This document shows positions 1 to 64,000 of a stretch of DNA of 64,000 nt, piece after piece (position 1 is the stretch's first letter; every line of letters starts with the position of its first letter). Source of the stretch: Litoditis marina. Lineage: Eukaryota; Nematoda; Chromadorea; Rhabditida; Rhabditidae. The stretch spans positions 5,291,241 to 5,355,240 of the forward strand of contig OZ038437.1 in assembly GCA_964036275.1 (NCBI GenBank). The letters run 5' to 3'. The notes beneath the pieces were generated by a model that made no database searches, was not told the origin of the DNA, and saw nothing but the letters and a program-made list of their open reading frames with translations. The position numbers and the translations under genes were made by a program.

Positions 1-60
1 TTGCGCATGCTTGATATGGATCTATATCACGTATTTGCATCATTTATCGCCTTTCTATAT

Positions 61-135
61 AGGTTTTGCACATCGAAAGCCGGTCCAGTAGTATGTTCCT
101 GTGGGACTCGTTTCTGTCTCTCGTGCGCGCACAAA
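61..135 (+). pseudogene. Exon echo of the ari-1 IBR exon
   Basis: Resembles 453-531, including the AGGT splice junction and GTTCCTGTGG core. It has a one-base insertion relative to the exon, and the equivalent Cys codons are out of frame, so it is decayed. Confidence 0.8.
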
Positions 136-457
136 ATTTGTACATTTTTTATGCTTTGAAATGTATAACTGTAGTTAGCTGTATTCCAATCCAGGGGAGG
201 GCAGATATGGTTTGTCCAACCAAAAAAAGTCAAGGAGGGGGGGGGGGGGTCGTTGTCGGTCCAAAGGGGGTCGACAATTGCACGGTTTGAGCAATCAAAA
301 CGAATCTTTTTCCGAAATTTTCCGTTATTTAAATAGGACCTTGTTCCATTTTTCAAAGGGGGGGGGGTCGTCTTGGATTTGACGTAAAACCATTCTCTGC
401 CCGCCCTTGTTCCAATCTAAAAATGGTAATTTTTCACTTTATCATTGTTCCTTTCAG

Positions 458-3400
458 GTGATGCATGCCGAAGCCCGCCCCGTAGTGTGTTCCTGTGGAA
501 CGCGATTCTGCTTTTCGTGCGCCCACGAATGGCACGAGCCGGTCAACTGTCGCCTCCTGAAGCTGTGGCTGAAGAAGTGCAACGACGACAGCGAGACGAG
601 CAACTGGATCAGTGCCAACACGAAGGAGTGCCCCAAGTGTCAGGTGAGTCATATGGGGTTTTTCGGGAGAGAACGGCTTCTTTTTTGCGATTGCGAAATC
701 CGTGAATTTTGGAGGTTTTTGACGTAAATGAGAGCGAAAAGAGCAACTGGATACTGGATCAGTGCCAATACCAAGGAGTGCCCCAAGAAAAATGATGAAA
801 TTTGAAGGTTTCCGATGTAAAATGATGTATTTTAATCTAAGAATAGCAAGGGGAGAATATTCGCATCTCAGTGGTGTATGATGCTGGTTCGACGAATTTG
901 CGGGATGCGGGCCTATTTAAACCGACAATTCATGCTGCTTTGGGCTAGCTCGTTCGAACGAGTTGGTTTGAAACATAACTTCAGTCATGAATATGTAGGT
1001 ATCATTTTTGGGAATGGAAACCCGTTTCTGTCACATTTCCCTTCGTCAAAGAAAACGACGACGACAATAACAACAAGTGTACTTCCGTTGACGAATGAGA
1101 CGAAACGCAATTCATTTATTTCGTTTCTCTTGTGATTTGCCCATCCATACACCGCCAAGGGTATCCCGTTTTTTCCTGAAATCTCGCGATACCCCTCCCC
1201 CCTCGTTTTTCGAGTCGCGACCCCTCCAAAATTGTTCAAAACTACGATTTTCATCAATTTTTGCTTTAATTCCAACTAGTTTTGTATGAAATTCGTGGCT
1301 TTTCAACTCGACACCACTACTTTTCATGAAAATTTGTTGGCGACCCCCCATCTATCTCATGAGAGGCCTTGGCGGCGTATGTAGCCCAACTCAGTCGTTC
1401 TATGTTCAGGTGACGATTGAGAAGGACGGCGGCTGTAACCACATGACGTGTAAGAACACGGCCTGTCGCACCGAGTTCTGCTGGATGTGTCTGGGAGCGT
1501 GGGAACCGCACGGAAGCGCCTGGTACAATTGCAATCGGTTGGTCATGTTTTGATTTTTCAGACATCTACTAAAATAATTGGGTAATTCCGTCTGTATGTG
1601 CGAAGCAAATAGTTTCTCCACTAGATCTCGGCAAAACGTAGAGGCCAGTGCAGAGCACTGCAAACATGTCTCAGAAGTTTTGTCAGTCTGGAATAAGAAC
1701 ATGGGAGGAGGAGGGGGCTTTAGCCGCCGGCGCCTACCTTGTAATTGATAATGGAGGAAATAGGTAGTAGGCTGCGCTGTGCAGATTGATTTATTTATTC
1801 CTTTACATGCAAATATATTGGATACATGTAGAAGAATGAAAATCAACGTAGATCCAATAGGTACGTTCACGGAAGTGCCTTGTTATCAGTGGGTAATTGA
1901 TTTTTTTGAAACAAAACAAAGAAGAAAGAATAGTCGTAGTGCGTGTAGTTATCTAAAGCTGGCTCGTCCATTCTTCTTCTTATTTCAAAAAGCGAAGTTT
2001 GAACAATCGTGGAACGAAAAGCGCACCTTCTAATTCTCTTTCATTTCCAGGTTTGACGATTCGAACGCCAAAAAGGCTCGTGATGCGCAGGAACAGTCGC
2101 GAGCGGCCCTTGAACGCTATCTCCACTACTACAACAGATACATGAACCATCAGCATAGTTTGAATCTGGAGAACAAGGTGAGTATTTTCTCTTTTGTTCT
2201 GTTTTCAGGTATCCTGGAGTGAAAATATTATTAGAATGTTCTGAGTGTAACATGCAAGGCAGCATTAGTTGCGTTAAATGGTTTTAAAATGAGCCATCAG
2301 CAGAGTTTGACGCTTGAGAACAAAACCGGATGGTTCACTGGAGCAACCAACAAAGTCGCCCTACGTTTGGAACTTCAGAACGCTGTTGAATATAAATATA
2401 GGTTTGCGTGTATCATATCAGTTGAGAGTTGAATTTGAATGCGTTTGTTTTTGCAGCTGTACGCGGCGGTGAAGACGAAAATGGACCAGATGCAACAGCA
2501 GTCGATGTCCTGGATTGAGGTGAGCAGTTTGTCCGGTGCGCCTTGGTCTCTGTATCATGGGTGACCACAAGTTTCCCGATATATGGTCAGTACGGCCTCC
2601 CCCCTGAAAAGTTGCTCCTTGCACGGTGCTCAACCTGTGGGCACCCCTGATCACAACGTGCAACCATACCCCAGTAAGGTTGTCCGAATAGTCAGAAAAA
2701 TCTAAACGGACTACATTTTCGCCGAAAAGAAGACAATTGGTCTACTTTTGATGAAAAATCATTAATTTTCACTTGTTTACATACGTAAACGGACTAACTT
2801 TTTGTCGCTTAGTCAGACCTTACAAGTGTTTGCGTGCAACAGAGTCTGAATTTATTTTGCAAAGCTTGTAGTTTGTAGTCACCACTCTGGGGTACCCCAA
2901 CTTTATATTCTTTGACTATCCTACAAAAAAGGACTCCGTTTCTTACTTAAATAGGCCAGTTTTCGTGATTCTGGCGAAAAGGGACCCTTTTACAAGCGGT
3001 TGGTACAATTTTTAGAGGAATATATTTTCAGGTTCAATTTCTGCGAAAGGCAGTGGACGTGCTGTCGGACTGTCGACGAACCCTGATGTACACGTACGCC
3101 TTCGCCTACTACCTGCAGAAGGACAACCAGTCTATGATCTTTGAGGATAACCAAAAGGTAATGTTTCGTGGTGGTTATGGGGTTGGGGTTCCCAATTTCC
3201 ATGTGTTTTTTTTATTAGTTTCAGTTCTTTACATGTTCAATTACATGATCTTTGAGGATGAAGGTAGCGTTTTGTTGTTGTTTTAGTGACCATCATGGAG
3301 GAAGTTGATTTTAGATACGTTAATAAAAATTTGTTTTCCTTAGAAAATTGCCGCATTTTCACTCGATTCACTCGAGTGTTTCAATTTGACAGGGTTGTTA

Positions 3401-4131
3401 GAAAATGCTGTCACTATAATCACAATTCTAATTTACATTACCTACATAACCTTCTGGATGATCCAATTTAATTTGCGAATTATTTACAATATTTACAAAA
3501 CTAATCCAATTGCAGGATCTAGAGATGGCCACCGAGCAGTTGTCCGAGTTTCTCGAGCGAGATCTGGATAACGAGAACCTGGTCACCCTCAAGCAGAAGG
3601 TATAGTTTATTTTGGTAATTTATACGGTATTCTTTGTATATTTTATACATTTTCCAGTAAAGCTGTTCGGAAAATTTTAATAAACGGGCTCCTTTTACCC
3701 CCACCCAAACACTAGTAAGGTCTGACTAAGCGACAAAAATTAGACCGTTTTCATACGTAAAAACGTCAAAATGTACGATTTTTCATCAAAAGTAGACCGA
3801 TTGGTGTCTTTTCGGCAAAAATGTAGTCCGTTTTTCAATTTTTTCTGACTATTCGGACAACTTTACTGGGGTATGCCCCCACTCCAATACAAGTTTGCCT
3901 ATTTTTGATGCATATAGTGAATGAAGATGCGTGGTTGTATGTAGTAGTCGCATCTTACTGGAGTATGGTGGTAATTAGAGAAAGTGAGAATACAAAATAT
4001 GGGTAGAAGAGTAACCGTAGTGTTCGATTTAGGTGCAAGACAAATACCGCTACGTGGATCAACGTCGTCTGGTGCTTCTGAAGCATTGTTCCGAGGGAGC
4101 TGAGCGGGAATCGTGGCAATTCACTCACTAA
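458..4131 (+). CDS. ari-1: Ariadne-1-type RBR E3 ubiquitin ligase, 3' part (5' exons outside window)
   Basis: Seven phase-compatible exons: 458-643, 1410-1537, 2051-2177, 2457-2519, 3032-3157, 3516-3599 and 4033-4131 (TAA), giving 270 aa. The first exon carries the end of the IBR domain ([11 protein letters not shown]) and opens RING2 with ECPKC. The second has the RING2 core: [10 protein letters not shown] contains the cysteine expected to carry the ubiquitin thioester, followed by [19 protein letters not shown]. The remaining exons form the helical Ariadne domain and end like family members (DKYRY near the C-terminus). In this family an E2 passes ubiquitin to the RING2 cysteine, often together with neddylated cullin-RING ligases in the cytoplasm; that is family knowledge. 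RING1 and the N-terminus must lie upstream of base 1. Several introns contain decayed copies of neighbouring exons. Homology is very sure; only the missing 5' end is open. Confidence 0.93.
733..787 (+). pseudogene. Exon echo of the end of the ari-1 IBR exon
   Basis: GAGCAACTGGAT...CAGTGCCAATACCAAGGAGT copies bases near 598-637, about 140 bases downstream, with small insertions. Confidence 0.8.
2289..2324 (+). pseudogene. Exon echo of the ari-1 exon ending at 2177
   Basis: ATGAGCCATCAGCAGAGTTT and the following TTGAGAACAA match the exon end coding [12 protein letters not shown]. Confidence 0.75.
2671..2826. mobile_element. hAT-like MITE, copy 1
   Basis: Inverted-repeat element of about 160 bp with ends like CATACCCCAGTAAGGTTGTC and its complement, plus the internal theme GACTATTCGG and GTCAGACC. 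Lies in an ari-1 intron. Confidence 0.8.
3711..3875. mobile_element. hAT-like MITE, copy 2
   Basis: Same family, opposite orientation, from TAGTAAGGTCTGACTAAGCG to TTTACTGGGGTATG. Last ari-1 intron. Confidence 0.85.
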
Positions 4132-4607: not shown

Positions 4608-4675
4608 TTTGTAGTTTGATCCTGTTTTTTTCTTCGTTAGAAATTTGTGAATCATGACGGATTAGACTACAAGCT
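4608..4675. mobile_element. Short GTAGTTTGATC inverted element (one of about ten)
   Basis: Small element of 50-70 bp with TTGTAGTTTGATC at one end and GATCAAACTACAA-like sequence at the other. Further copies lie near 19282, 33024, 36608, 39940, 44234, 49080 and 60228, with partial ones near 18298, 26555, 31159 and 61565. Confidence 0.7.
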
Positions 4676-5536: not shown

Positions 5537-8500
5537 ATGTCGTTAGCCGAAGAATTAATGGCCGATTTTGATGAGGACGATGCAGATGATCTGGAGGAGG
5601 CATTGGAAGATGTGAGTGGAGAGAGACAAACCAGCTCTGAGCTGTAGTTTTATCCCTGAAAACATCAGTGGCCGTATTCACCAAGATCCCGGGAAGGGGA
5701 AAAGCTTCCCGCGCCTCTGGACCCTCCTCACCAGCACACTAATTTCGTGCTCGACCTTCCCGCGGGAAGGTATTTTAGCTTCCCGAGGATTGGTGAATAT
5801 GGCCACAGGAATGAGCGAGGTCTGACTGAAAAACATGGCATTAAACTACATGCACAGCAGGCAGGATCACATGTCCGGTTCTAACAATGTATCTTGAAGA
5901 CAATTCGGGTTACGAAGAAGTAAAGACAACTGTTCCAAATCAGTTAACACTTAACTAGCGTACAACGTATAGAGGTTCTGAGATGCTTTTATCTTTTTTC
6001 AGTCAATTTTCATTAGAATATCGATTTTTGCGTTTTGTTTAGTTCAAGTAGAAAAGGGAGACAATTTTTATGAGGTGTGAGTGAAAACTCATTTCCAGGT
6101 GAAAGAGGAGATTGAGGAGGCCACAGAGAGCATGGTCACGGAGCAAATATACGCCACGGTGCACGAGGTGGCGCGGCTGTCAACTAGTCAGAAGTGAGAC
6201 ACATATTTATTTGAAATATTTTTTGTTATCCTTGGAAAATTCATAAAATATGACGTATAACCTAGGCCACTGTTCATAGCACGGCTGTCAACTAGTGAGA
6301 AGTTATTAAGGGAAAGGAACATACCTCAGCAAAGTTGTCCGAATAGTCAGAAAAAAATTAACACGGACTACTTTTTCGCCGAAAATAAGACAATCGCTCT
6401 ACTTTTGATGAAAAATTATAAATTTTCACTTGTTTACATACGAAAACGGACTAATTTTTGTTGCTCAGTCAGACCTGAACCCTTACTGGGGTTCGGAAAG
6501 GAATATCAACTCATTTGATTCTTATTAATTCCTCTTGCTCGGTGCTAGTTGAATAACGTTCTGATTAAAGGCATTTGTGGGATCCCTGGTTAGTTATGAT
6601 GAAAAAAGAGCTTGAAAAGAGATTCACTACTTTTTGATTGTTGTGATAATTTTTGCTCATTGTTCTGTCTTCAGCTACATTGATTTGGTGGCGGCGTTGC
6701 ACCGCGAGTTGGAGAGGGAGGACGAGGTTCAGGTGACAGCCCCACTGGAGGCGGATCCCCAGTATCAGCTGATCGTCAAATTGTCTCATGTGAGTTACAA
6801 TATTACAAGTATAAAGGGATAGGGGAGTAGATGTTTGACCTCCCAGGTAACCGCCGGATACGGCGAGAAAAAAAGGTGACTAGTTGTATTGCGAAACTAG
6901 GTGATTTTAGTGACAGCCTCGTTGGAGGCAGACCCTCAGTATCAGCTGATCGTCAAAGTAAGTTAGGAATATACTCTATACCTTGGTTAAATATTTCGTA
7001 TACCACAAGGCACACCAGTTAGCAGTTAATAATGGACCGGGTTCCGGTTAACCTGTACAAGTGTTCACCATTTTCTAGTATCCGGTTTCTACAGAATTTT
7101 TAGGAGAAGTATATGTGCATTTATTTCAGTTAGCCGCCGAGATAGACGGTGAAATCCACGTGATCCACAAGTTTGTCCGTGACAAATACGAGAAGCGGTT
7201 CCCTGAGCTGGAGACATTGGTCCCGAATCCATTGGAATATCTGGCAGCCGTCAAACTACTGGGAAACGAGATCAATACCAAGGGACAGAATAAGGTTAGT
7301 GGTATACCGTATACATAACGAAAATTAGCACGTCAGGCTGAGAAACATGAGCATGAGCACTACCAAATGGTGAGTATGTTCAACCTAAAATGCGTGAACT
7401 TTGTAATTTTGTATCGCATATACAACATACGAGTCAACGAGTGTCGCGAATAAGTGGGAAAAGTGAGAGACGCAGATAGAATGAATGCGCCGGTTTGTAC
7501 TAGCATCTAGCATACGTACTCTACTCAGGCGTTCAAGTTTCTGTGCCGTGTATTAACTCAAACATTTCACACAAATAACATTGTCAATGACTGCCGTAGA
7601 GATAGAAGGTGGAGATAGGTGTGGATGAGCTATATTAACAGATCATTGGGTCCGTGAGACAGTTACCGCTGTGAGCGGGAGTGGAGATCGAACCCGGGTC
7701 TGTAGAGCGACAGCCGAACGCTAACCACTTGACCACTCGGGCCCGTTCCTTACTTACATACACCAGTAAGGTCTGACTGAGCGACAAAAAGTAATCCGTT
7801 TTTCGATATAAACACGTGAAAATTTAGGATTTTTCCAAAACAGTTGATCGATTTTCATCTTTTCGGCTAAAATGTAGGCGGTTTTTCGAATTTTTCTGAC
7901 TATTCGGACAACCTTGCTGCTGAATGCTTACTTATCATGTCACTTATCCTGTATATAATCCCCGTTACTTGCAGGAGTTGCTGGGCCAAATCCTCGCAGC
8001 TTCAACATGTATCGTGGTCTCGGTGACAGCCTCAACTACCCAGGGAAAGGCACTGGATGCCAGTGAACTGGCAGCTGTAAATGAGGCCTGCGATCTGGTC
8101 GAGTCGTTGCATACGGTAAGGGGATCACTCTCTCTCTCTCTCTCTCTTTATACATCTCTCTCTTCCCCTCTCTCTCTCTCTCCCTCTTTCCCTTCATTCC
8201 TTTAACTCTCACTTCCTCTCTCTCTCACAATAAGACACATTATCAACCGTAGATGGGGTGCATATAGGTATGGGTGAGCTTTGTTACTACTCATGCGTTC
8301 CGCCAGACAGATACCGCGGTGTGTGGGGATCATAGGTGCGATACCCCGGTGATCTCACCGGGGAACCTTAACTTTTCCTCAATTGGGCTAGGGGCCTGGG
8401 GGAGGGCATAACCGCATATCTTTTTCAACAAGTCTGAGTTTATTAGGTAATCACCTAGGACAGACCTATAACTCTTTGGAGGGGATGTATAGTCTGTTCC

Positions 8501-11500
8501 ACGCACTTATAACCCTCTACAGTAATCTTTGAGAACTTCTAGATCCACGTTTCGTAGTTTGATGTTTTTGGAATTACTTCAATTTTCGCTATTGTGTTTT
8601 CTATCTATGCTACTAAAAACTCTGGAAGTTTGAAACCAAAATACTGATTTATTGATTAGAAAAAGCTTTCTAAACATGTGACGGATCACTGTAGAAGGAC
8701 ATCGATTGGTGAAACGAACTATATAACTCTTCAAACCGACAATGTCCCACCTATGGTGAGGATCGAACCCAGGTCTGTGGAGCGACACGAAACGCCAACC
8801 ACTCCAATTTCTTGACCAAACTACAGGTTAAACCAGACACTCCAATCGTTTGCAGAACCGTCACGACATGCATCGTCTGGTGGAGATGCGAATGTCGCTC
8901 ATCGCCCCGAACCTCGTCAGTCTGCTAGGTGCCGGCACCACCGCTCAACTGGTTGGTTATATATGGGTTTCTATGTTTCATTATAAACTTTTTTTCGTTT
9001 GTTAGGTTCAGATGGCTGGTTTTTTATAATCTGTCACTGTTGGTGATTACTGACTGATCATCAGAAAACGGGATCAGAACTAGGGTTGTTCTCGAATCTC
9101 CAACACGAATGTTCGCTCGTCTTGCTCGAAGTTTAGTCACGATTAAAGTACTTGCAGCCTCAGTATTTGATGACGATAAGTCGATAGGGCTCAGCGCGAA
9201 ACCGGCCTGTTTTGAAAAAGTGGTTATTCTACATATAGGGTTGCGACAGTTTTTCGGAAAAAGTAGGGGTCCCGAGTTGAAACCGAGCGAATTTTCTACA
9301 AAATTAAACGAAAATTGGTCAAATTCGTCGTTATGGAGGGGTCGCAAGAATTTTCAGTTGATGAGGGTCCCTTCGACCCTTGACGGTGTATGTACACTTG
9401 TACAAAGAACTCTGCTCGGTTGATCAAGTTCTTATGTAAATGTGTTTTAGGTTTCACAGGCGGGAGGATTGGCGCCGTTAGCAAGAATGCCTTCGTGCAA
9501 TATTCAGGTATGCTTTTCCTTTTCTCAACTTCACAAACTTTCCAAATTTGAATGTGCAAAATTCGTTAGTTTATTCAAATGTGTTGTTGTGTTGTCGCGG
9601 AAGACTATTTGAACCCAGGCGAGTTACTGTTAGTGTATTAAATTTATGTTACAAACTTTAGAAAAATCTAGTATAAACTTTTCGTCACAGGTGCTTGGTC
9701 GTCAAAAAAGATATAAATGTTGTGCAATTATGGTTGTATAGTTATTATTATTATTATTATTATTATTTCTCAGGTGCTTGGTCGTCAGAAGAAGACGTTG
9801 GCCGGCTTCTCTTCTTCGACGTCGAATCCTCACGTGGGCTTCATATTCCACCACCCCATTGTACAATCGCTGCCACCAGATCTTAAGTTGTAAGTTGAAG
9901 AATGATAATAATAAGTTTATTGCGCAAATATTACATTTATTTACAAATTTATTCATTCACGTCGCTTCGTTACGAGGCGCATCAAACATATCACATAAAA
10001 GAAAGTACCAGTTCAGTTGAGAACCTGCTCCCGACAACATAGAATGAATAGAGAAACTTTCAAACCAAAAATGAGCTCTTTTATGTTAAGTGGGGAAACC
10101 GGGAAACATCAGTAAAGTATGTCTGTTCTTCGAGCAAGCTCTTGTATGCGCATGTTTTTTTTTAGAAAGGCGATGAAGGTGTTGGCCGTTTATGGGAAGT
10201 TTGTAGTTTGATCGGCATGCACATCATATAATACGATTCACGACCAGAACGGATTATCGATTTTTATTCAGAAAACTATTTAATCGGATTATCGATTTTC
10301 TTTCAGGAAGGCAATGAAGGTGTTGGCGGCGAAGACGACGTTGGCAGCCCGCGTGGACTCACTGCACGAGTCGCCGGAGGGCGAGATCGGGAGGGATCTA
10401 CTCGAACAGGTAGAGCATTGTATTCTTTCAAATGCAACAATCAAGTTAATATGTTGAAGGAGTGACCAATTCTCCGTTATAGTCCGATCTTGACACACAC
10501 CATTTTTTGGGGACCTTGACACAGAAGTAGTTTGATTCCATTTATTTCGGTGAAAGCAGTAATGATTCCCTCTCAATGCATGTTTGCTCAGGTTTAATGT
10601 GTTTATGGTGTGAATCTTTGTCAAGCTATAAAGCTATCAAGGTTGGGTGATCTGATATTTCATTGCGCGCAACCTGATGAAGAGGTTGCCTCTTTGAAAA
10701 AATCGTCTGAGGAAACGTTGCCTCAGTTGGCAATAAACACCAGTAAGGTCTGACTAAGCGACAAAAATCAGTCCGTTTTCTTATGTAAACACGTGAAAAT
10801 GTACGATTTTACATAGAAAATAGACCGATTTCTGTCTTTTCGGCCAAAACGTAGTCCGTTTTTCGAAATGACTATTCGGACAACTTTACTGGGGTATGGT
10901 TGGCAAGTTTATTGTGTTGGTGTTTTCAGGTACATAAGAAGTACGAGAAGCTATTGGAGCCACCACCGGTGAAGGCCTCGAAAGCACTGCCGAAACCACT
11001 GGATAAGGCTAGCAAGAAGAGAGGAGGTGAGACTACAAACTACAACAAATGATGATCATTTTGGCCTTATTGCGGAACCTTGGTATTGCGGTCTTTTTGG
11101 GTTTCAGCATGATGGTGTAATTTCGGCTGCATCGCAGATGTTGATGCTACAGTAGGGTTGTTAAACTCAAACTCGAAAATTTTCGAGATGAGTCAAACTC
11201 GAAACTCGAAAAATTTCGAACTCGATTAACAACCCTATGCTACAGCTGAAGTAGAGGGACGTGCATTTTCTAGTTTTTTGCTAGAGGCCACTTTCACCAC
11301 GTATTTCACGATTTTTCATTTTCACTCTATAAAATAGGTTCATTGAGTTATAGATTTATGTTTATTTGATTTTTGATAACCCTTAGACTTTTGGGCGACT
11401 TCTTTATTCAACCCGGTGTTTCGCTAACCCTAGCCCTTAACCATTAGCCGGGTTACCTGGTGAACCACTTGGTAACCCTAAATTTGGCCCAAAAGACGTT

Positions 11501-13842
11501 GTAAAAGAGAAGTGGTTAACAAAATGGTTAACCAGGTAACCCGGTTAAGGTATTTCGTTGACCCTACCAGGTAATCTTAACCGGGTTACCTGGTAGGGTC
11601 AACGAAATACCGGGTTCCTTCTGGAATTGGCCGATTTTCGAACATTAATGGATTTTGCAGGTCGTCGTGTGCGTAAAATGAAGCAGCGTCTGGGCATCAC
11701 GGACCTGCGAAAGAGTGCGAACCGCATGAATTTTGGAGAACTCGGCGAGGACGTGATGCAGGACCATATGGGCTTCGATGTTGGACAGGTGTGTGAAAAA
11801 GTCGATTCTGTTCAAACTGGAAAATTCAATTTTCAACGAACTGGACATTCACAATTTCAGACGAGAACACTAGAAGTTTCGGCTTTAAACTCTGAAACTT
11901 CAATCTCGGTCGGCAACCCTAGTGTTGCCATAGTATATTGCACTCTTACGTGCGATTTGTGAAGTATTCTTTTCACATATTTGGTATCTGGCCAGCAAAA
12001 AGTTGGTCTAAAACGTTTTATATTTACTTTCATTTTTCATAGTTTTGTCGTCTAGATTAAAGTCAGCCACAAGCTTGTGTTTACGATTGAATGAGCGTTC
12101 TACACTTCCTACTCCGTGTCAGATAATCATGAGATTATCCCGCTCACAGGCTAAGCAACTGGCTGGTTCGAGCAAAAAAATTGTTTTAACATTTAAAAAA
12201 AGATTTTCACGGGGGAGGGACCATTTTGTACTCGTGCATAAGTTGTTTAGAGAAAAGTTTGCAACAGTTCATGAAAATCCAGAATAGAGTGTTTTAATTG
12301 AAATTTGCGACGGACCAGAAGACGCACGCCAAGATGTGCTTACGATTTTCATGTAGTTATATAAGTATAATCAGATTGAATGATATAAAGTGAACTAGTA
12401 TGAAGTAATTAAATAAATGAGTCGATAAACTACGAATAATGAATACTATCCATAAAAGTTAATCAATGATTAAGTTTAAAGTTACACCGTTTCGGCCTCT
12501 GCAGTGTAGTTTGATGTGCACAGACTAGAACCCTCTTGGTACAACATATCAAACTACAACCACAGAAGTCAAGCTACAAACTAAATTACGAACTACGAAT
12601 CCATTCTTCAGACGAAGGGTGGCAACGTGGCGGGCGGTAGTATCCGAGCTGGTGTCGTAGATCAAAAAAAAACGCGCGCAGTCAAACTACAAACATATTG
12701 TAGTTGACACATAAATTGATGCCGCAGCACACACAGATCAGACTACAAAAATCGTGATCCCAGGGTTTCAGACGACGTTTTCCTGTGTTATAGTTTGATG
12801 CCATACAAAATGTATGATGTCTTCGTGTTTCAGGCGAAAATGGAGAGCGCGGCGCTTCCTCATAGTATTGTAGTTTGATGCCGCAACACAGATCAATCTA
12901 CAACTGTACAAAGTCAGACAACAAACTATACAAATCCATTTTCCAGACGAAGGGTGGCAACGTGGCCGGCGGCCGAATTCGTGCTGGTGTCGTAGATCAA
13001 AAGACGCGCGCCAAGATGTCACAGAAGCTGCAGCGACAGGTGGAACGACAGAAGCAGCACGGCGGGATGACCAGCATCAAGAACAAGATGGTGAGTGTAG
13101 TATTGTAATAATAATAATAATAATAGTAATAGTATAAAAATTCCTGGCAATCGTGACCACTAGGTTTTCAGTCAGTTAGTACCTGACTTTGACGCCTTGA
13201 CGTTCCTGACTAACTCGACTCTCTCTCTTGGTTGGCTCTTGATAAACTTAAAACGAACGCTCGAAAAAACTCGAAACTTTTCGAGTCGAACTCGAAAACT
13301 CGAAATTTTCCAAAACCTCGAAAAATCGAAATTTTGAACTCGATTAACAACCCTATTAGACATCAATACAATGTAATTAAGTACAATAATAGCGTATACA
13401 ATAATAATTGTTTACAGATTGCCGGAACTGCTTCGTCGGTCTCGTTTACTCCCGTGCAGGGTCTGGAGATTGTCAATCCGATTGTGAACGAGCAGCGGGG
13501 CGCTGCTTCTTCTTCCACGTATTTCTCGTCAGCGGCTACGTTTGCCAAGGTTTGTTACTTATTAAATACACAAATTAACTACAAACCTAATTTAACTTTA
13601 ATAGAACAAAGGTCTGAGGAGGAGGAGGAGGGGAAGGAATACGTTTGTATTGTCTCGTGTCGCGACCTATTTCTCTCTCTCGCTTGTATTTGGTAAAATC
13701 AGATGGCAATGATTGGCTGACCTCACCAAACTACAAATGACACCAGTGAGGAAGTTTTCACAGTTGCAGTTTTGATATATTGTACATCGGGATTAAGATT
13801 TAACCTTTATATATTCAGGTCGGAACCCCAAAGCCGCAATGA
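5537..13842 (+). CDS. prp-31: U4/U6 snRNP pre-mRNA processing factor PRP31, complete
   Basis: Fourteen exons, all phase-compatible: 5537-5611, 6099-6193, 6675-6789, 7130-7294, 7975-8115, 8856-8951, 9451-9507, 9774-9889, 10307-10409, 10930-11026, 11661-11788, 12947-13090, 13418-13549 and 13819-13842 (TGA). They total 495 aa, close to the usual ~500. The protein starts with an acidic segment. The NOSIC/coiled-coil part includes FPELETLVPNPLEYL. The Nop domain includes IVVSVTASTTQGKAL, MSLIAPNLVSLLGAGTTAQL, MPSCNIQVLGRQKKTLAGFS and HESPEGEIG. The C-terminal part has KKRGGRRVRKMKQRLG and GTASSVSFTPVQGLEIVNP. PRP31 binds the 15.5K protein and U4 snRNA in the nucleus and is needed to build the tri-snRNP. 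The start is the first ATG before the conserved acidic N-terminus, shortly after a CTCCAG acceptor-like site. The extreme C-terminus is short (VGTPKPQ). Introns hold several MITEs and exon echoes. Confidence 0.95.
5668..5806. mobile_element. Palindromic MITE, GTGGCCGTATTCACCAA family, copy 1
   Basis: About 139 bp, folding on itself: ends GTGGCCGTATTCACCAA and TTGGTGAATATGGCCAC, with inner TCCCGGGAAG and CTTCCCG blocks. First prp-31 intron. Confidence 0.88.
6326..6493. mobile_element. hAT-like MITE, copy 3
   Basis: Same family, from CATACCTCAGCAAAGTTGTC to CTTACTGGGG, in a prp-31 intron. One end is slightly rearranged. Confidence 0.75.
6905..6962 (+). pseudogene. Exon echo of prp-31 exon 3
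   Basis: Copies the part encoding TAPLEADPQYQLIVK (exon bases 6733-6780), with CAGTATCAGCTGATCGTCAA intact. Confidence 0.85.
7685..7743 (-). repeat. tRNA-like (SINE-head-like) segment 1
   Basis: On the minus strand: TGGTTAGCGTTCGG, later GGGTTCGATCTCC. It has a box-B-like motif and tRNA-like length, but no closed acceptor stem. Confidence 0.6.
7762..7925. mobile_element. hAT-like MITE, copy 4
   Basis: Same family, from CCAGTAAGGTCTGACTGAGC to GACAACCTTGCTG, in a prp-31 intron directly beside a tRNA-like segment. Confidence 0.75.
8128..8228. repeat. CT microsatellite
   Basis: CTCTCT tract just after the prp-31 exon 5 donor, interrupted by short unique bits. Confidence 0.85.
8484..8727. mobile_element. 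~240-bp TA-MITE (TATAGTYTGTTYCACC family), copy 1
   Basis: Ends TATAGTCTGTTCCACGCA and TGGTGAAACGAACTATA, with inner CTACAGTAATC and its complement. prp-31 intron. Confidence 0.78.
8752..8806 (-). repeat. tRNA-like segment 2
   Basis: Minus strand GAGTGGTTGGCGTTTCGTG, then GGGTTCGATCCTC. Close relative of the segment at 7685 and directly next to a TA-MITE. Confidence 0.55.
9739..9768. repeat. (TTA)n microsatellite
   Basis: About ten TTA/ATT units immediately before the acceptor of prp-31 exon 8. Confidence 0.9.
10161..10195 (+). pseudogene. Exon echo of the prp-31 exon 9 start
   Basis: TTTAGAAAGGCGATGAAGGT repeats the acceptor and first codons of exon 9 (10304-10333). Confidence 0.75.
10738..10900. 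mobile_element. hAT-like MITE, copy 5
   Basis: Same family, from CACCAGTAAGGTCTGACT to TTTACTGGGGTATGG, in a prp-31 intron. Confidence 0.85.
11405..11625. mobile_element. GGTTACC-rich inverted element, copy 1
   Basis: Dense GGTAACC/GGTTACC sites (ACCGGGTTACCTGGTAGGGT near the right end), in the prp-31 intron before exon 11. Confidence 0.65.
12607..12686 (+). pseudogene. Exon echo of prp-31 exon 12
   Basis: CAGACGAAGGGTGGCAACGT through AAACGCGCGC copies the acceptor and first 70 bases of exon 12 (12943-13016), with an A-run expansion that breaks the frame. A shorter echo of the same exon lies at 12312-12342. Confidence 0.9.
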
Positions 13843-24836: not shown

Positions 24837-24885
24837 GAATGCGTCTGATTATCTTTATCCTCTCTTCTTCCCTCTCTACTCGCAT
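24837..24885 (+). pseudogene. Exon echo of the signal-peptide exon
   Basis: AATGCGTCTGATTATCTT and the CTTCCCTC...TCTCGCA part match exon 1 of the secreted-protein gene (24971-25019), 130 bases upstream. Confidence 0.8.
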
Positions 24886-48900: not shown

Positions 48901-51900
48901 CTGAAATTTTCACACAATGTTCAATTCGTGATTCTCTAACGTTCTCTCCTTTTAGTTTTCGAAAAAAGGATATGTTTGAAGATTTTTGGTAATCAAAAGG
49001 AAAAAACGAGTCCGCAATGGCCAAACCAAAGACAACTCACGCAGAGCGCTTCGCGCTCCGCGCGATTATCACAGCTCAAATGTAGTTTGAACTCAATACA
49101 TGCCATAATTTACAAGGTTTAAACGAAAAACTGCGAGATCAAACTACCTAAAACACAATTTTGCGTATTTGAACGGGAAAATGGGTTCCTTTTCATAGAA
49201 TAGTCACAGCTTACTAGTGTGTGTAAACGAGTGACATAAATTGTTTATACAACTACGGTTACCCACCTCTTTAACCAGTTCCGGCAACAGACTTCCGGTA
49301 TTATTCAGGTCCAGTCGTTCCGGCTGCTGCCGCACCAACGTGGGTAGTCCGTCTGAATTCGTATCCAACGCATTGAGATGAAGCCATTCGGACAATTTGT
49401 CTAGGTCGTGGAACTCCAACTCGATTGTTAGCTTGCCGCGGTACACCTGAAATCATATATCAGGAAAAAAAGGGGATGATCATAGTTGAGATGTAGTTTG
49501 AGCTAGATACACAACACCTGAGTTGTAGTTTGAACCTGATACACAACATTTACGAGTTTCGGCATGTAACTCTCTAACTCAATTGTGAGCTTGCAGCGGT
49601 ACCCCTGAACTATGTTGGGTGAAGAGTTAAAAGGTTTTCGAGTCGCTAGAGTATTATAGAGTGATAACAAGAGCCTTCTAGCTGCGCAATTTGGGGAAAT
49701 TCCGTAGCTGCTGTCGGAAAATCTTCGAATTTTAAACACGGTGTGGTTCCAGATAGAGATATAATACTCGGCTAAACTGACTGGAGGGAGATTCCTTTAC
49801 TTTGGCTTCAGCTGGGCTGCGGAGACACACAACTTTTTCCGAATACCGGCACTAATTGTATAATTACATAAGACTTGGTTTTATTATGTGAAGGGGATGT
49901 TTAACAGATCAAACAAAAACTATGTCAATAACTGACCCAGTATTTTGAAAAACAGTTATACCATACTGTAACTGTCTGGGTTCTATTCGTATCGCCAGTC
50001 AACTTACACTTCACAATCAACGCGAATTTCAGAGACTACAACAAAAAAAACCATTCGAAACCAACCTTCATGTACTTGGGAAGTTGCTTATGGAGTCTAT
50101 CTTTGAATCGGAAACAACACGCAGGACACTCGACTATTCCACTGGCTTCCAACCTAAAAATTGAATTGCATCAAGTGAAGATGGATTAATTTCCCTGTGA
50201 CATTGTGAAAGAACATGTATAGCAAACACCGTTTGTACGAAAACATGAAATAGAGGTCAAGAAACTATTTAAAACCAGATCGACGAAACCAGAATCCGAA
50301 TCCTGATTTTCTGGTCAACTGTCGCTTTTTTTCGATATTAGAAATGAAGGAAGTTCCTTCAGAACATAGGGATTTGCCAAACCGAAAACAAACAAGCAAC
50401 GGTGGCCTAAATGAATTTGAGAAATCTCGAATAAACCATACCTTTGCTTCAGATTATCGATTTCCAGTTGTAGGTCATTTATCTGTTTCCGAGCAGTGAT
50501 GATGAGCTTGCGCATATTGTCAGCGTATGTTACCCGTTCGTCGTTGGTCAGTACGGAAGAAGATTGAGGCACCGCCTGTTTCGACTGAAAACCATGAACC
50601 AACGTAAAGTTGCCAGAATAGCCCGCAATTTTTAAAACAAATCTGCTATTTTTGATTTTAAAAAAACAGGCACCCAATATTTAGACTGCAAATATATCAA
50701 CACATGGGCAAAACTAGTGGGGTGTGACTATTCTAGAGCAAGTAGTCCGTTTTTGAATCTGAATACGTGGAATTTCATGATTTAGGATAAAAAATGAGCT
50801 CTTTCGTCGTTGCTCAATCCAAAATGAAGGGGTTGCGGCTGAGCAGTCGCCAACTGCTTGGGAGCATGCAGAAAAATACTATATAAGGACACCAACTGGA
50901 ATTTTCATTTACTATTTGGAGTGTTCCGTAAGAATTTAGCTGTTCTATACGAACTTCTATTGGTTAGCTATCCTCTAAAGAAAATTGCGCATTGAGGAAC
51001 CTGTACCGTACCTAACTTTCACCTCGGAGGAAATGTGAACAAACAAAACATAAAAAAGTGCTCACCTGCTGAAGTATATGCCTTGGTGGCAGGGGTACAT
51101 TCGCTGTTCTATCTGCATTGACCGCCGCTCGTTTTCTGGGAGAGGCTGAGGGTTTCTGGACTTTTGCCAGCGGACTCTTCAACGGACTCTTCACATAGTT
51201 ATTGAGCAAGGTACGAGGAGATCTCTTCACCGGAGACGCTGGAAATCGAGAGGCAAATGAGGTGAATTTCTTCCCGAACCGACTCATCCCGAACCAGTTG
51301 GTTCGTTCCAGAACCGAACCAAATTTAGGCCAACAAAGTTGGAACCGAACCAATTCATGTAATTAATGCTGACATTGGTCGACTCTCGACTGCGTAACGT
51401 TTATTAGGGTTTGGTTCGGTTTCTTGTCGGTCTGAGTACGCAAACGGTTCGGTTCCCTACCGAACCAACTGGTTCGGGAAGAATCGGTTCGGTTTTGGTT
51501 CGGGAAGAGTCGGTTCGGGGAGAAATTTGCCGGCAAATGAGCAAAATGACAAAAATTCGGCTAGCAGCTGGCAGCAAGTTCCTATGAAAAGAGCTAGAAC
51601 GTGGTCGAGGTGTCGAGGATAGGATATGGTTCGGTGCATAACTTTACACTGACGTTTTAGACCCGTTTTCAATGAGAACAAACATTAGTATCGATTTACA
51701 TGGGCGTCAAACGAGAAGCCGTCGTCAAACGTATGATATGAAGCTGGCCTGGCGTGATCAAAACGTCTAAGTTGTGCGCAAAACTTTAATCATTTTCTGG
51801 ATTTTTGGCCGTGTTGTAAGGTAAATAATTTTTCTAATAAGCAATACCTACCAAGATCTTCCATGATCCAGCCCCATTCGTCATCGTTTTGCATAGCAGT

Positions 51901-59500: not shown

Positions 59501-62500
59501 CAGGAATGAAAAAAGGGGAGGCGTTTCGATTGAAATACGCGAAATTCCATAATTTTGGTAAAAAAATTACAAGTTTTGTGAATTTTCGCCTCGATAGGAA
59601 AGGCAGCATTTACTGCATTCGTGCAGCTGGCACATGATGAGAGGTGGGTGGCACCGAAATAATATATAAACTTCAATGTATGTGTAAAGTAAAATCTGAA
59701 AGTGGAATGTTTTGCGAATATTCATATCGATTTCAGATTCTATGCCAAGATCGATTTGAAGAAAGCCATCATTCCCAAGGTGCTAAATGTTGTCCGAAAG
59801 AAGTTGGGGTAAGTACCTTGTAAGGTTTGAGTGGTGAATGCCAATTCGTTTCAACGTTAACGCAACCACATTTACTACAACGAATATTAAATAAGAAAGC
59901 AAATTCCGATTAGTACAGGTCAAATTTATTGATTCTCCATAAAACGCAAGATGAATAGTTTTCTGAAAATTCCTTTTTTTTTTACCCGAATTGCCAAAGT
60001 TGGGGATGGGGTTGCTTGGAGCTATTTCACCCTGCTCATCGTATTTTCAGCCACTGGAACCACTGCTCGACCTTCCTTCTTCCCACCATGGCTGTGATTC
60101 TGGATCGACTAGACAGCGACGCTGACAAACTGGGATTCGTCACGGCGTTCCTGGAGTCCTTCTTGGATCAGATGCCATTTGAGGTGGGACACGTGTCTCA
60201 ATATTGGAGACGTGACTAAATCTTTGTCGTAGTTGGATCTTGATACCCGTCACAATGTACAAGTTTCGACCGCAAAGCAGAGGGATCAAACTACAAACTC
60301 AATAGCCTTAAAAGAATTACCGTAGCAATTTGGGTCATGAGAGGGCGGAAGTGTGTTTTAGGTCTCTTATTGTGGTGTACTTGCTTGTCTCATTGATCAG
60401 AGACGGCCACAAAACAAGTTGACAACACCAGCTAGGCGAAATAAACGTATGAAGGATTAAGCATTGACTAAGAATGTGATGGACGTCTGAATTCAGATGA
60501 CGTCCCTGATTCCACTCTGGTCGACGTCGTTGGCCGAGTGTGTCAAGTGTGCCCTGACCAAGCTGCCCGGAGAGAAAACGGCCGAGAAGTGTTCCGCTTT
60601 GGTCAGTTATTGATATTAAACGTAAGGCGACTTTGTTTGACACAAAAATTGATAGGAATTTAGGTGTTCTTCTGAACAATCCAACTACGAAACTGGGTGG
60701 ATGGCTGGTATGGTTTTCACCAGTTGAAGAAGACTAGTTTTGAAATTAGGGTAGTTCAAAATCCTGATTCAGATGAAAAACTGGTGATTCTATGGACCAT
60801 CCAACAAAGTGACCCTATGTTTGATTGATATATAATTTGTTTGGTACGTACACTACCTTATTGGTAGATGTGGAATTTCAGTTTACTCGTCATTTACATG
60901 TAATCACAGGCCGGGACAAACATAGGAGCTTAATTTGCATGTAATATCTCGAGGTAAAGTATTTTGAAGGAACTGGTTACTGGTATTAGTCACGTGTTAG
61001 GTTCAGTCACGTGTTTTACAAAGTATCTGGCAATAACCTTCATCTTTTCCCAGTTGATTTCCGCTATTGACACTGCTGAAGGTTAGAGGAGTCAAAGGAT
61101 TATAACCTGACCTCATTATAAACTATTACATTGACTTATTACGTATTTTTACCCAATTCCAATTGTTTTCTGCTATTTATGGATTTATCTCTTCACATGG
61201 TTAGGTAAAACTTGTATTTCCAGTTGATTTCCGCAATTTACACCTCCGTAGGGGAATCAGAGGACGTTAACATTTGCCGCTAACCTTAAATTAGTCTTAG
61301 CTTGACAAAAGTGACCTTAAACCTTAAATTCACCTTAACTTAAGATACCCTGATCTCTAAACTTATTTCCAGTTGATTTCCGCTATTGACACCGCTGAAG
61401 GGGAGTCTGGAGAAGTCCAATCTAACCTTGTGGACCTGGTTCATTGGATCTGTGCCAAGGCGGCATTCCAGCCACACCAGCTGGCACATTTCATCGACCT
61501 TCTGCAGTTGAATTTGATCAACAAGGTGGGCAAATGTGGTTATAAAGAGTTACACCATTATTATTGTAGTTAGATGTCAGTATGCGGTGACAGAAAACTA
61601 CAAACACAGAGGTTTACAGCTAGATGTACATAGAATTTTGTTCAATAAGGTGGAGGGGGGGGGGGGGGGGGTAGGTTAAGACTTGTCATTTGTGAACATT
61701 GTGAAAAAATTTCTCTGTAGAGCAAACTGTGATTTCCTCTCCTGAGAACTTGGGGTGTTTAGAAAATCAAACCAGAAATGAAGTTCTCGACAAGTGAACA
61801 TTCAGAAGAAAAATCAAGGGACTATAAGATTCTGAAAGGGGGGATTCTGGGTGATCGAGTAAACGTGGGCTCAAAAGGGCCGCGAATCTGACATGTCTGA
61901 CAATTGTGACATCAGTTTTAATAATAAAGTTTTCTACTTTTCTCTTATAATATCAGTTATCACTTATATTATCATGAACAGTTTGAAACACTGTCTCTTG
62001 TAATGTTTAACTTATATTGTTCTTCTATATTCTATTTATTGATTCCTTCAGCGTCCCTCGACGGACCGGCTGCTCTCGCTCCTCTTCGCTCCCTCCTGCT
62101 GGGAGCTGCGTCATCTCCACGTGGGAGTACTGCGAGTTCCTCCCATCATCTCCTCGTTCCTCAATCCCCTCACTAGTTGTAGTGACGAGTACTTCCGATA
62201 TGTGGCCAAGGTTCGTTTGTTGTTTTGTAGTTTGACCTCGAAACTGTATTTTGATCTTGAGACCTGTAGTGAGAATACTACCGATAGCTGAGGTAAATGT
62301 TCTGTATATTGATCTAGGAACTATAGTTTGGTCTCGACACCTCATCAATTTTAGTGCGGAGTACTATAGATATGTGGTCAAGGACTCAACGTTGGTGCAT
62401 TGTATAATTATTGTAGGTTTGTATTCAGGGGTGACCACAAGTTGCACGCGTGCCACATTTTTAGGTGGGGGGGGGGGGGGTCTTACAGTCCGAAAATTAA

Positions 62501-64000
62501 AAAAAAGGTGGTTTTTGCCGATTTTCGTGAAAATCCCGCAATTTTGAAGTATGATTTCGTTTTTTTCGACGAAGTTCTATTTTGTAAGAGGGAGGGGTCG
62601 TACCGCTGGTAGGGTCGGTCAACTTTTTGATCACCCCTGTTTGTATTGTCTGTTGTGAGGGTTGGGGTTTGCGATAGCCATTTTGTTGGACTCGCAACCG
62701 TTTCTGGATTCATAAAAAAAGTTTATTCAGTCCCTCATCAGTTGTAGTGACGAGTACTACCGATAGGTGGCCAAGGTGAGGGAATCCTCTGTGAGCTCAT
62801 ACACCCGTTAGGTGCGATCATTTCACAAAAAAGGTACTGTTTCCTAAGCTAAATACATTAAACTTGGAACTTTATTATTTCATAAACTTCTACATGTTGT
62901 ACATACATAATAATACTGATACATATAATGTGTATTTTCAGGAGCTGGACCTGGTGCGTGCCATCTGCAGCCATCACCCGGCTCTGCGCGGAGGAGAGGA
63001 GTGCGGTGTGGCGGCGGCGGTGGTGGTTAGGGCATTGGAGGATGGGTACAGGGATCAGAATGTTCTGAGGGTGGGTTAACTATGTATTATAAGAGAGAGA
63101 GAGAGAAGTGGGGGAGAGAGACAACGAGAGGAGGAAGAGATAGAGAGAGGAGTGCGGTGTGGCGGCGGTGATGGTGGTTAGGGCATTGGAGGATGGGTAC
63201 AGGGATCAGAATGTTCTGAGGGTGGGTTAACTATGTATTATAAGAGAGAGAGAGAGAAGTGGGGGAGAGAGACAACGAGAGGAGGAAGAGATAGAGAGAG
63301 AGGAGTGCGGTGTGGCGGTGGTGGTTAGGGCATTGGAGGATGGGTACAGGGATCAGAATGTTCTAAGGGTGGGTTAACTATGTATTATAAGAGAGAGAGA
63401 GAAGTGGGGAAAGAGACAACGAGAGGAGGAAGAGATAGAGAGAGAGAGGGACGAGTGTGGCGGCGGTGGTTAGGATGGCTACAGGGATCAGACTGTTCTC
63501 AGGGTGAGTGGCCGTATCCACCAATAAGTTTTACCTCTCTCGGGAGCGTTTTTAGGCTCCCGGGAACAGAATATCAACCAAATTTGCTCTCCCGGGAGCG
63601 GTTTTACGCTGAGAGGAAACATTGTTGGTGGATACGGCCACTGTACGGTACGGGTATTCTACAAAATATTGTTTTTGGCGAGACGCCGGCGAGTCAAGTT
63701 TTGCTGCCCCCCCCCCCCTTGGCGATGACGTCGCCGGCGACACGTCGCTGAAGAACATATAGCATATGATTTCCACACACCACTGAGGTGGGAGTGGTCG
63801 TTGAAATAATGCAGTTTTCGATTTTAACGCTAATTTCGTTGTTCTGAATCAAAAAGGTGTAAACTTGCCTGGGTTCCGCGAAAATCAGCTTTTTTGGAAT
63901 TTTGTATCTTTCAAGGTGGTTAATATTTGATTAGTTTTCAAGACGGCCGACGCGAACCTGAAGCATTGTCTGTTGGCGGCGGCGTCGCGAGCCAGCGACA
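53560..64000 (+). CDS. LTN1: Listerin (RQC E3 ubiquitin ligase), N-terminal part; continues beyond window
   Basis: Eighteen phase-compatible exons: 53560-53595, 53808-53883, 54213-54325, 54609-54707, 54987-55079, 55694-55798, 56094-56176, 56420-56480, 58217-58330, 58782-58832, 59236-59348, 59737-59808, 60051-60183, 60497-60601, 61373-61525, 62052-62210, 62942-63070 and 63943-64000 (cut by the window end). The conserved listerin N-terminus is visible: a basic MSKPQRRKGNAK, AHLLASSG, FIGFDG, then ILKKLSKKDPQTREKAL, followed by HEAT-like helical repeats. The C-terminal RWD and RING domains must lie outside. Listerin ubiquitinates nascent chains stuck on 60S ribosomal subunits, with NEMF/Rqc2. 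The start lies nine codon-free bases after CTCTTTCAG, a good trans-splice acceptor. The exon at 62942 is followed by tandem copies of its own end and donor. Several introns carry exon echoes. Confidence 0.87.
56728..56867. mobile_element. Palindromic MITE, GTGGCCGTATTCACCAA family, copy 2
   Basis: Close copy of the element at 5668 (same CGCGCCTCTGGACCCTCCTC centre), in an LTN1 intron. Confidence 0.88.
57207..57271 (-). repeat. tRNA-like segment 6
   Basis: Minus strand TAGCGCAGTGG and GGTTCGATCCC. Left member of the mirrored pair in the 1.2-kb element. Confidence 0.65.
57390..57645. mobile_element. GGTTACC-rich inverted element, copy 4, nested
   Basis: Ends AAGTAACCGGGTTTATTTGG and CAAGAAACCCGGTTGCTTAT. 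It sits in the middle of the larger element at 56947-58122. Confidence 0.75.
57783..57860 (+). repeat. tRNA-like segment 7
   Basis: Plus strand TAGCGTATTGGTTAGCGCC and GGTTCGATTCC. Right member of the mirrored pair. Confidence 0.65.
59466..59655 (+). pseudogene. Two echoes of the end of an LTN1 exon
   Basis: The segment at 59595-59655 copies GGAAAAGCAGCATTTACCGC and the rest of the exon through its GTGGGTGGC donor. A shorter one near 59480-59515 copies AGGTGGGTGGCAGGAATGAA. Confidence 0.9.
61052..61262 (+). pseudogene. Two echoes of the start of LTN1 exon 61373-61525
   Basis: CCAGTTGATTTCCGCTATTG at about 61052 and CCAGTTGATTTCCGCAATTT at about 61222 repeat the acceptor and first ~30 coding bases. 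The first hits a stop after GAAGGT. Confidence 0.9.
62258..62776 (+). pseudogene. Three echoes of the end of LTN1 exon 62052-62210
   Basis: Near 62262-62295, 62350-62385 and 62729-62776. The last is clearest: AGTTGTAGTGACGAGTACTA, then CCGATAGGTGGCCAAGGTGA, against the exon's SCSDEYFRYVAK coding end. Confidence 0.88.
63071..63505 (+). repeat. Tandem array repeating the end and donor of LTN1 exon 62942-63070
   Basis: Units begin at the exon's GTGCGGTGTGGCGGCGG part, run through GGGATCAGAATGTTCTGAGG with the GTGGGT donor, and end in a GAGAGAGA tract. The marker GATGGGTAC sits at 63041, 63192 and 63339, with a decayed unit near 63474 (periods 151, 147, 135). Each later unit retains a donor. Confidence 0.93.
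63508..63641. mobile_element. Palindromic MITE, GTGGCCGTATCCACCAA subfamily
   Basis: Same terminal design with a different interior (TCTCCCGGGAGCG). It lies in the LTN1 intron right after the tandem exon copies. Confidence 0.82.

What the first reader, a model, noticed from the sequence alone, without database searches (positions are those of the whole stretch)
1..64000. Exon echoes: partial exon copies in neighbouring introns of every gene
About thirty decayed copies of exon fragments sit 70-550 bases from their source exon, in the same orientation, in all six genes. Most span a splice junction (for example 12607-12686, 26646-26731, 37756-37922, 49558-49613, 59595-59655, 61052-61262). They range from near identical (26646) to barely recognisable (3241-3264), so the process looks continuous and not a single event. 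A local tandem duplication bias whose breakpoints fall in introns would explain introns growing from exon material and would supply raw cryptic exons. I know of no named system for this pattern.
Basis: partly seen in the sequence, partly recalled or inferred. Interest (0 to 1): 0.82.

Follow-up and report, generated by a model that had tools for sequence, protein, structure and literature searches.

The report
Decayed exon-edge copies in nematode introns
Many introns of this worm hold a short, decayed copy of the end of the neighbouring exon, and the pattern of differences suggests that these are scars of failed DNA repair between two very different gene versions, not working gene parts.

Summary
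PRPF31 places the genome near clade V nematodes. In window plus 200 kb, exon-intron pairs are 38 direct to 1 inverted. Copies of exon 3' ends lie downstream and of 5' starts upstream, with one exception in 42. Exon edges exceed masked intron tiles: 20/152 and 9/151 against 14/689.

The intronic copy looks dead: 12 frameshifts to 4 in-frame indels, stops at the neutral rate. Spacers are homologous in 15 of 38, so old tandem duplication is likely. The surprise: synonymous differences (0.33) do not rise with nonsynonymous ones (halves 0.022 and 0.113), as if each copy came from an allele about 20% diverged at silent sites. I favour aborted repair synthesis plus end joining in a highly polymorphic worm, where only exons keep homology. 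The diversity itself is untested. Known process, new variant.

The parts
458..643 (+). exon of an ARIH1 (ariadne)-type gene; source of two echoes
   Evidence: gene model; Pfam IBR, UBA_ARI1, Ariadne
77..135 (+). upstream echo of the 5' part of exon 458-643 (80%, with a 1-base frameshift)
730..787 (+). downstream echo of the 3' part of exon 458-643
2289..2323 (+). downstream echo of the 3' end of exon 2051-2177
3241..3264 (+). weak downstream echo of the 3' end of exon 3032-3157
6263..6303 (+). downstream echo of the 3' end of PRPF31 exon 6099-6193
6910..6957 (+). downstream echo of the 3' part of PRPF31 exon 6675-6789 (5 synonymous, 1 nonsynonymous difference)
9691..9711 (+). upstream echo of the 5' start of PRPF31 exon 9774-9889
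10155..10186 (+). upstream echo of the 5' start of exon 10307-10409, including its acceptor
12594..12667 (+). upstream echo of the 5' start of exon 12947-13090
15854..15895 (+). downstream echo of the 3' end of exon 15566-15730 (one of three; carries a stop)
15976..16030 (+). second downstream echo of exon 15566-15730 (the gene finder called 15961-16026 an exon)
16108..16159 (+). third downstream echo of exon 15566-15730
24837..24864 (+). upstream echo of the start of exon 24972-25082
26650..26736 (+). downstream echo of the 3' 78 bases plus donor of exon 26410-26542 (94%)
37878..37924 (-). downstream echo (minus-strand gene) of the 3' end of exon 38067-38207
37757..37786 (-). second downstream echo of exon 38067-38207
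49558..49613 (-). upstream echo of the 5' start of minus-strand exon 49267-49446 (core 49572-49602)
59594..59653 (+). downstream echo of the 3' end of LTN1 exon 59236-59348
61047..61082 (+). upstream echo of the 5' start of LTN1 exon 61373-61525
61215..61258 (+). second upstream echo of exon 61373-61525
62732..62777 (+). downstream echo of the 3' end of LTN1 exon 62052-62210 (carries a stop)
62340..62383 (+). more diverged downstream echo of the same exon edge (77%)

Best explanation
Each echo is the remnant of a short local tandem duplication (offset 94-565 bases, most often about 125-200) with one breakpoint inside an exon, 20-80 bases from its edge, and the other in the adjoining intron. 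Shown: direct orientation, same-side placement, truncated exon piece, homologous spacers in part of the pairs, neutral decay of the intronic copy. Inferred: the duplication arose when a broken end was extended by repair synthesis (SDSA) on a template and then joined by polymerase-theta-type end joining instead of annealing. Inferred with moderate support: exon edge and echo are two different alleles about 20% diverged at silent sites, either because the template was the divergent homologous chromosome or because population recombination later swapped the exon for another allele. In such a polymorphic genome only exons stay similar, which would explain both why exon edges dominate and why similarity stops near the splice site. 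Speculative: pieces longer than about 80 bases are rare because a longer stretch would let the second end anneal properly.
For: 38 direct against 1 inverted exon-intron pair; 49 against 2 for all exon-involving pairs. Of 42 pairs, 30 downstream and 12 upstream, each on the side of the copied exon edge except one copy-of-a-copy. Wrong-side searches give 1/143, 1/143 and 1/92 at score >=20. Spacer after the exon resembles the sequence after the echo at p<0.05 in 15 of 38 pairs, about 2 expected. Copy neutral: 12 frameshifting against 4 in-frame indels in 35 pairs, 3 stop changes against 3.8 expected. Allelic offset: 36 pairs, pS 0.326 and pN 0.068; pS 0.331 and 0.322 in the low- and high-pN halves (pN 0.022 and 0.113), offset pS-2pN 0.19, bootstrap 95% 0.12-0.25. 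The offset model beats a neutral clock by 29.5 and a constrained copy by 5.6 log units; a lead of 5.6 over the constrained model was reached in 0 of 150 simulations under constraint, 0 of 150 under the clock and about 19% under the offset model. Literature: C. elegans helq-1 tandem duplications of about 100 bp-10 kb come from TMEJ of failed SDSA (PMC8654963, one section and passages); crossovers in hypervariable S. commune favour exons (PMC4209137, abstract).
Against: High diversity of this species is not shown: only one assembly is held. No second allelic copy appeared for the PRPF31 region, but only 40 of 4704 first-look candidates were scored there; none for three further exons, where all candidates were scored. 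Either is uninformative if haplotigs were purged. A silent offset near 0.2 would exceed the C. brenneri figure quoted in PMC11230420 (about one site in ten; passages). In the list 16 of 61 isolated non-exon pairs are at least 95% identical (rounded), so some local duplications here are born identical. Spacer homology was not detectable in 23 of 38 pairs, and the spacer identity estimate failed its control (77% in 14 chosen alignments against 75% for random pairs). Breakpoint microhomology cannot be read at this divergence. The codon analysis rests on 36 pairs, some sharing an exon, and on frames from my own gene models. The lead over the neutral clock alone does not separate offset from constraint (reached in 17% of simulations under constraint). 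With arrays unmasked the exon excess is smaller. Search for PF20470, a domain that I recall from HELQ and POLQ, found nothing, but six-frame exon-by-exon search is weak for this.
Confidence: 0.5

Rival explanations
1. Ordinary cis tandem duplication anywhere in the gene, followed by clock-like decay. Exon edges stand out only because the source exon is conserved, so exon-derived copies stay recognisable about twice as long as intron-derived ones.
For: Local direct duplicates also occur in introns and intergenic DNA (69 and 183 direct pairs against 4 and 12 inverted, many of them arrays), and isolated non-exon pairs show a similar offset mode at 125-150 (12 of 61, against 13 of 45 exon-involving). 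With arrays unmasked, intron segments score nearly half as often as exon 3' ends.
Against: Predicts pS about 2 x pN; observed 0.326 against 0.068, with no rise of pS as pN rises; fit worse by 29.5 log units, not reached in 150 simulations under the clock. The masked exon-to-intron ratio is about 3-12 fold, more than decay asymmetry should give. Exon echoes at 95% identity or more are scarce (2 of 42, one of them a minisatellite).
Confidence: 0.27
2. The echoes are functional alternative exon ends kept by selection on the protein sequence.
For: Mismatches are concentrated at third codon positions (47/558, 31/561, 129/558 over 42 pairs); downstream copies keep a donor-like site in 17 of 30 cases (4.8 expected).
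Against: 12 frameshift against 4 in-frame indels; stop changes at the neutral rate; no acceptor excess at the left edge of downstream copies (5/30 against 3.5 expected); worse fit by 5.6 log units, not reached in 150 simulations under constraint.
Confidence: 0.08
3. Assembly artefact: pieces of a second haplotype stitched in tandem by the assembler.
For: Allele-like divergence between exon edge and echo is what a stitched second haplotype would show.
Against: The 264 kb holds only three N runs (200, 23, 5200) and contigs reach 55 Mb, pointing to a long-read assembly (inference), where a 150-base error would need no supporting read. Up to three echoes at one exon edge would need several haplotypes. 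Stops and frameshifts should be rare in a live allele.
Confidence: 0.07
4. Templated insertion: a short exon piece is copied and dropped nearby without its neighbouring intron.
For: In 23 of 38 pairs no homology beyond the piece could be shown.
Against: 15 of 38 pairs do show spacer homology. Templated insertion should give inverted copies and copies on the wrong side, which are nearly absent.
Confidence: 0.08

Closest known systems
Tandem duplications from TMEJ of failed SDSA in helq-1 C. elegans (PMC8654963; one section and passages read)
   Same: Nematode; head-to-tail direct duplicates; size from about 100 bp; copied stretch is the one synthesised during repair.
   Different: There a mutant background with sister template, median about 1 kb, no exon preference mentioned in what I read. 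Here in a natural genome, exon-edge bias and allele-like divergence.
Repair-mediated duplications by capture of proximal DNA in vertebrates (PMC2671141; passages read)
   Same: Short local duplicates (median 147 bp, within 5 kb), attributed to SDSA, continuous in time, sometimes including exons and splice sites; two duplicated full exons showed no constraint.
   Different: There few donors hold exon (of 824: 4 partial exon/intron, 2 full exon, 2 intron/full exon/intron, besides UTRs) and one exon copy is inverted. Here exon edges dominate, on the adjacent side and almost never inverted.
Doublets / short paired duplications (Thomas et al., seen only as cited in PMC2671141)
   Same: Abundant short local paired duplicates.
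   Different: No exon-edge or allele-offset feature known to me (recalled).
Exon-preferring crossing-over in hypervariable Schizophyllum commune (PMC4209137; abstract read)
   Same: Recombination favours exons when homologues are very different.
   Different: Crossovers, not duplications; a fungus.
Tandem exon duplication with mutually exclusive splicing (recalled)
   Same: Exon material duplicated beside its source in the same gene.
   Different: Whole exons with both splice sites and open frame; here at most 59% of an exon and mostly broken frames where indels occur.
Direct repeats at intron borders (PMC11782384, abstract; PMC9169325, passages)
   Same: Direct repeats near splice sites linked to break repair.
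   Different: Repeats of 4-30 or 3-8 bases at both intron borders; here 20-80 base exon copies lie inside the intron beside one border.

Membership tests
Tandem duplication from aborted SDSA plus end joining | Direct, head-to-tail copies | tested here: met
   38 direct against 1 inverted exon-intron pair; same-side placement in 41 of 42
Tandem duplication from aborted SDSA plus end joining | Whole unit duplicated (spacer homologous to sequence after the copy) | tested here: inconclusive
   15 of 38 pairs at p<0.05, about 2 expected; 23 not detectable
Tandem duplication from aborted SDSA plus end joining | Microhomology or templated insertion at the junction | not testable with these tools
   copies too diverged; no polymorphic case held
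Tandem duplication from aborted SDSA plus end joining | Dependence on POLQ, raised by HELQ loss | not testable with these tools
   PF20470 search returned 0 matches, too weak by exon; PF00476 and NF002654 searches did not complete
Repair-mediated proximal duplication (Pace et al.) | Donor within 5 kb, insert of at least 50 bp | tested here: inconclusive
   offsets 94-565 fit; recognisable exonic piece 20-80 bp, full unit presumably larger but decayed
Tandem exon duplication | Complete exon copied with both splice sites | tested here: not met
   exonic fraction 0.14-0.59 in 35 pairs; no acceptor excess on downstream copies
Tandem exon duplication | Reading frame kept | tested here: not met
   12 frameshift against 4 in-frame indels; stops at the neutral rate
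Minisatellite array | Three or more head-to-tail copies found by TRF | tested here: not met
   excess persists after masking 104 TRF arrays outside exons; window exceptions include 62994-63468 and the coding array 32553-32986
Introner-type or inserted intron with flanking direct repeats | Direct repeats at both intron borders | tested here: not met
   the copy lies within the intron next to one border; exon edge against the intron on the other side of the same exon gives 1/143 and 1/143

The most novel reading that the evidence does not exclude
In a hyperpolymorphic animal, double-strand break repair on the homologous chromosome can only find homology in exons. When the shared exon stretch beside the break is too short (under about 80 bases) for the second end to anneal, the extended end is joined instead, leaving the old exon edge stranded in the intron. 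Introns would then be an archive of failed interhomologue repair, growing from exon material, and each echo would preserve an allele that the gene no longer carries.
Probability: 0.27. Interest if true: 0.82.

Novelty: new variant of a known kind. Interest (0 to 1): 0.58.

Why it matters
If right, it gives a readable record of repair events and of past alleles from a single genome, links genetic diversity to intron growth, and makes a clear prediction: exon-edge echoes should rise with silent-site diversity across nematodes. It also warns gene finders, since echoes can be called as exons (two were here: 10166-10198 and 15961-16026).

Tried and rejected
Chance similarity: rejected by mismatched-pair nulls. 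Copies as cassette exons: no acceptor excess on downstream copies. A dispersed motif in some spacers (TTGTAGTTTGATC; one 12-mer 51 times in 264 kb): also elsewhere, not pursued as cause. Spacer identity by permissive local alignment: control failed, not used. The first self-comparison used a complexity filter that dropped long hits such as 26465-26551; replaced. Other chromosomes: four 10-kb samples held few genes; 1 of 6 introns tested had an echo at score 17, too little to generalise, so nearly everything rests on 264 kb of one chromosome. Allelic copies elsewhere in the assembly: none seen, with the limits named above; one search did return the two ARIH1 echoes as the only other matches. 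Rows dropped: 7 of 49 exon pairs because the copy overlapped another predicted exon (onward); of the 42 left, 4 more, 6, 7 (arrays, copies of copies, overlapping pairs); two of the 35 rows resolve to one alignment. One search aligned 14 of the 38 spacer pairs. Searches use the 36 rows printed. HELQ status: undecided. Literature: searched the open-access library only; I saw titles and abstract starts of the listed papers (lists were capped, empty) and found none describing exon-edge echoes of this kind.


Full report
What was checked. The window is part of a 21-Mb contig of a 262-Mb genome. Its PRPF31 protein is closest among named species to clade V nematodes (Ancylostoma caninum 78% identity, Auanema 81%; the best hit, 87%, is unnamed; the clade label is recalled). 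I added 60 kb left and 140 kb right, and trained a small two-strand gene finder on two hand-annotated genes, ARIH1-like and PRPF31. It gives 22 genes and 243 exons in 264 kb; in the window 9.4 kb exon and 40.3 kb intron. Pfam supports ARIH1, a Nop-domain PRPF31 and LTN1; the start of the minus-strand gene (230 aa given) has no Pfam match.

The echoes are real. Ungapped self-comparison of the window finds same-strand pairs piling up at 100-400 bases and thinning beyond: 27 at 100-200 and 17 at 200-400 against 5 at 1000-1500, 2 at 1500-2000 and 9 at 2000-3000 (score >=18). In the window 17 of 139 exon edges have a best echo of score 15 or more. Over 264 kb, after masking dispersed repeats, exon-intron pairs are 38 direct and 1 inverted, all exon-involving pairs 49 and 2. 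An independent genome-wide search with three exons returned, besides the exons themselves, only the two ARIH1 echoes.

They obey strict geometry. Of 42 usable exon pairs (49 found, 7 dropped because the copy overlaps another predicted exon), 30 copies lie downstream and 12 upstream. Downstream copies take the 3' part of the exon, upstream ones the 5' part, with one exception that is a copy of a copy. Searches on the wrong side give 1 of 143, 1 of 143 and 1 of 92 at score >=20. With gapped alignment of 35 pairs the exonic piece is 20-80 bases, 14-59% of the exon, and the stretch between exon edge and copy is 49-521 bases. No whole exon was seen among them.

Exon edges are favoured. With arrays and dispersed repeats masked outside exons, exon last-60 against downstream intron gives 20/152, exon first-60 against upstream intron 9/151, and intron 60-bp tiles against downstream intron 14/689 at score >=20 (reverse-complemented tiles 5/689, mismatched pairings 0.6 and 1.2); at >=30 the direct counts are 8, 5 and 3. 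Before arrays were masked the contrast was smaller: 23/155 and 11/155 against 7/104, 3/104 and 3/60 at >=20. Visibility (a conserved source) should account for about a factor of two (inference), not for all of the masked contrast.

The copies look dead. Indels inside the copied exon piece are 12 frameshifting to 4 in-frame, not far from the 2:1 of neutrality. Stop-creating changes are 3 against 3.8 expected. Downstream copies retain a donor-like site (score above 3) in 17 of 30 cases, 4.8 expected, but show no acceptor excess (5/30, 3.5 expected).

They are most likely old tandem duplications. The intron after the exon resembles the sequence after the echo at p<0.05 in 15 of 38 pairs, about 2 expected. 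In 23 pairs nothing is left to see. An attempt to measure spacer identity failed its own control and is not used.

The unexpected result. Mismatches between exon edge and echo fall at third codon positions: 47/558, 31/561 and 129/558 (42 pairs). In 36 pairs, silent divergence is 110/337 (0.326) and nonsynonymous 75/1097 (0.068). If the copy has decayed neutrally since birth, silent divergence should be about twice the nonsynonymous. It is not, and it does not track it: halves with pN 0.022 and 0.113 have pS 0.331 and 0.322, rank correlation -0.22 (p 0.19). A model with a constant silent offset of about 0.2 fits best; a neutral clock is worse by 29.5 and a constrained copy by 5.6 log units. A lead of 5.6 over the constrained model came up in 0 of 150 simulations under constraint, 0 of 150 under the clock, and about 19% under the offset model; a lead of 29.5 over the clock came up in 17% of simulations under constraint, so that comparison alone does not separate the two. 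Together with frameshifts and stops, this says that the two copies probably already differed at silent sites when the intronic copy began to decay freely.

How it most likely works. The simplest source of such an offset is allelic divergence in a very polymorphic species. C. brenneri shows that nematodes can be highly polymorphic (PMC11230420, passages). In C. elegans, tandem duplications arise when an end extended by SDSA is joined by polymerase theta instead of annealing (PMC8654963, one section and passages read). In hypervariable S. commune, crossovers favour exons (PMC4209137, abstract). Put together: a break in an exon near its edge; the end is extended on the homologue past the splice site into its intron; annealing fails because only a short exon stretch is shared; end joining leaves new exon edge, new intron start, then the old exon edge. 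This gives direct orientation, same-side placement, short exon pieces, exon preference, allele-like differences and decayed spacers. The steps of strand invasion and joining are inferred, and the high diversity is not demonstrated. Plain cis duplication followed by allele replacement through recombination would leave nearly the same trace.

What weakens it. In the list 16 of 61 isolated non-exon pairs are 95% identical or more (rounded), against 2 of 42 exon pairs, so part of the local duplication here is in cis. No allelic copies were seen elsewhere in the assembly (where only 40 of 4704 candidates were scored, where all were). The sample is one 264-kb stretch; four 10-kb samples from other chromosomes contained only 6 testable introns, one with an echo. 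Repair-gene status could not be settled (and the unanswered calls).

Comparison with the known. Repair-mediated proximal duplications in vertebrates (PMC2671141, passages) and nematode tandem duplications after failed SDSA (PMC8654963) are the same kind of event. The exon-edge bias, same-side rule and silent offset are new to me and did not appear in the listings. I therefore rate it a new variant of a known kind.

Noticed in passing
264-kb region, e.g. window 4611, 10203, 26553, 26593, 36610, 39942: GTAGTTTGATC occurs 53 times on both strands where 0.18 is expected; the 12-mer ATCAAACTACAA is the most repeated non-simple 12-mer (51 copies). Short dispersed motif of unknown origin.
   Followed up: partly
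window about 6320-6476 and 7757-7926; a third repeat about 5659-5810: MITE-like dispersed repeats of about 150-170 bases, the first two being one family in opposite orientation; dozens of copies on several chromosomes among the 107 matches listed (only the 40 best candidates scored).
   Followed up: no
window 32553-32986: 42-bp array, about 10 copies at 97%, inside a predicted coding exon of the minus-strand gene.
   Followed up: no
window 47568-47951 and 48355-48763: A 384-base block of 138-base units repeated 807 bases away at 99% identity within an intron.
   Followed up: no
window 10166-10198 and 15961-16026: The gene finder called echoes as exons, a likely trap for automatic annotation of this genome.
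   Followed up: partly
left flank, window coordinates -59177 to -54999: Ty3/gypsy-like retroelement polyprotein (label recalled) with an in-frame stop.
   Followed up: no
C522:3494-4831; C16:27842971; C4:17290825: COX1 match on contig C522 with 12 TGA read through (mitochondrial-type) and two short nuclear COX1-like matches, one below the family cut-off, perhaps numts.
   Followed up: no
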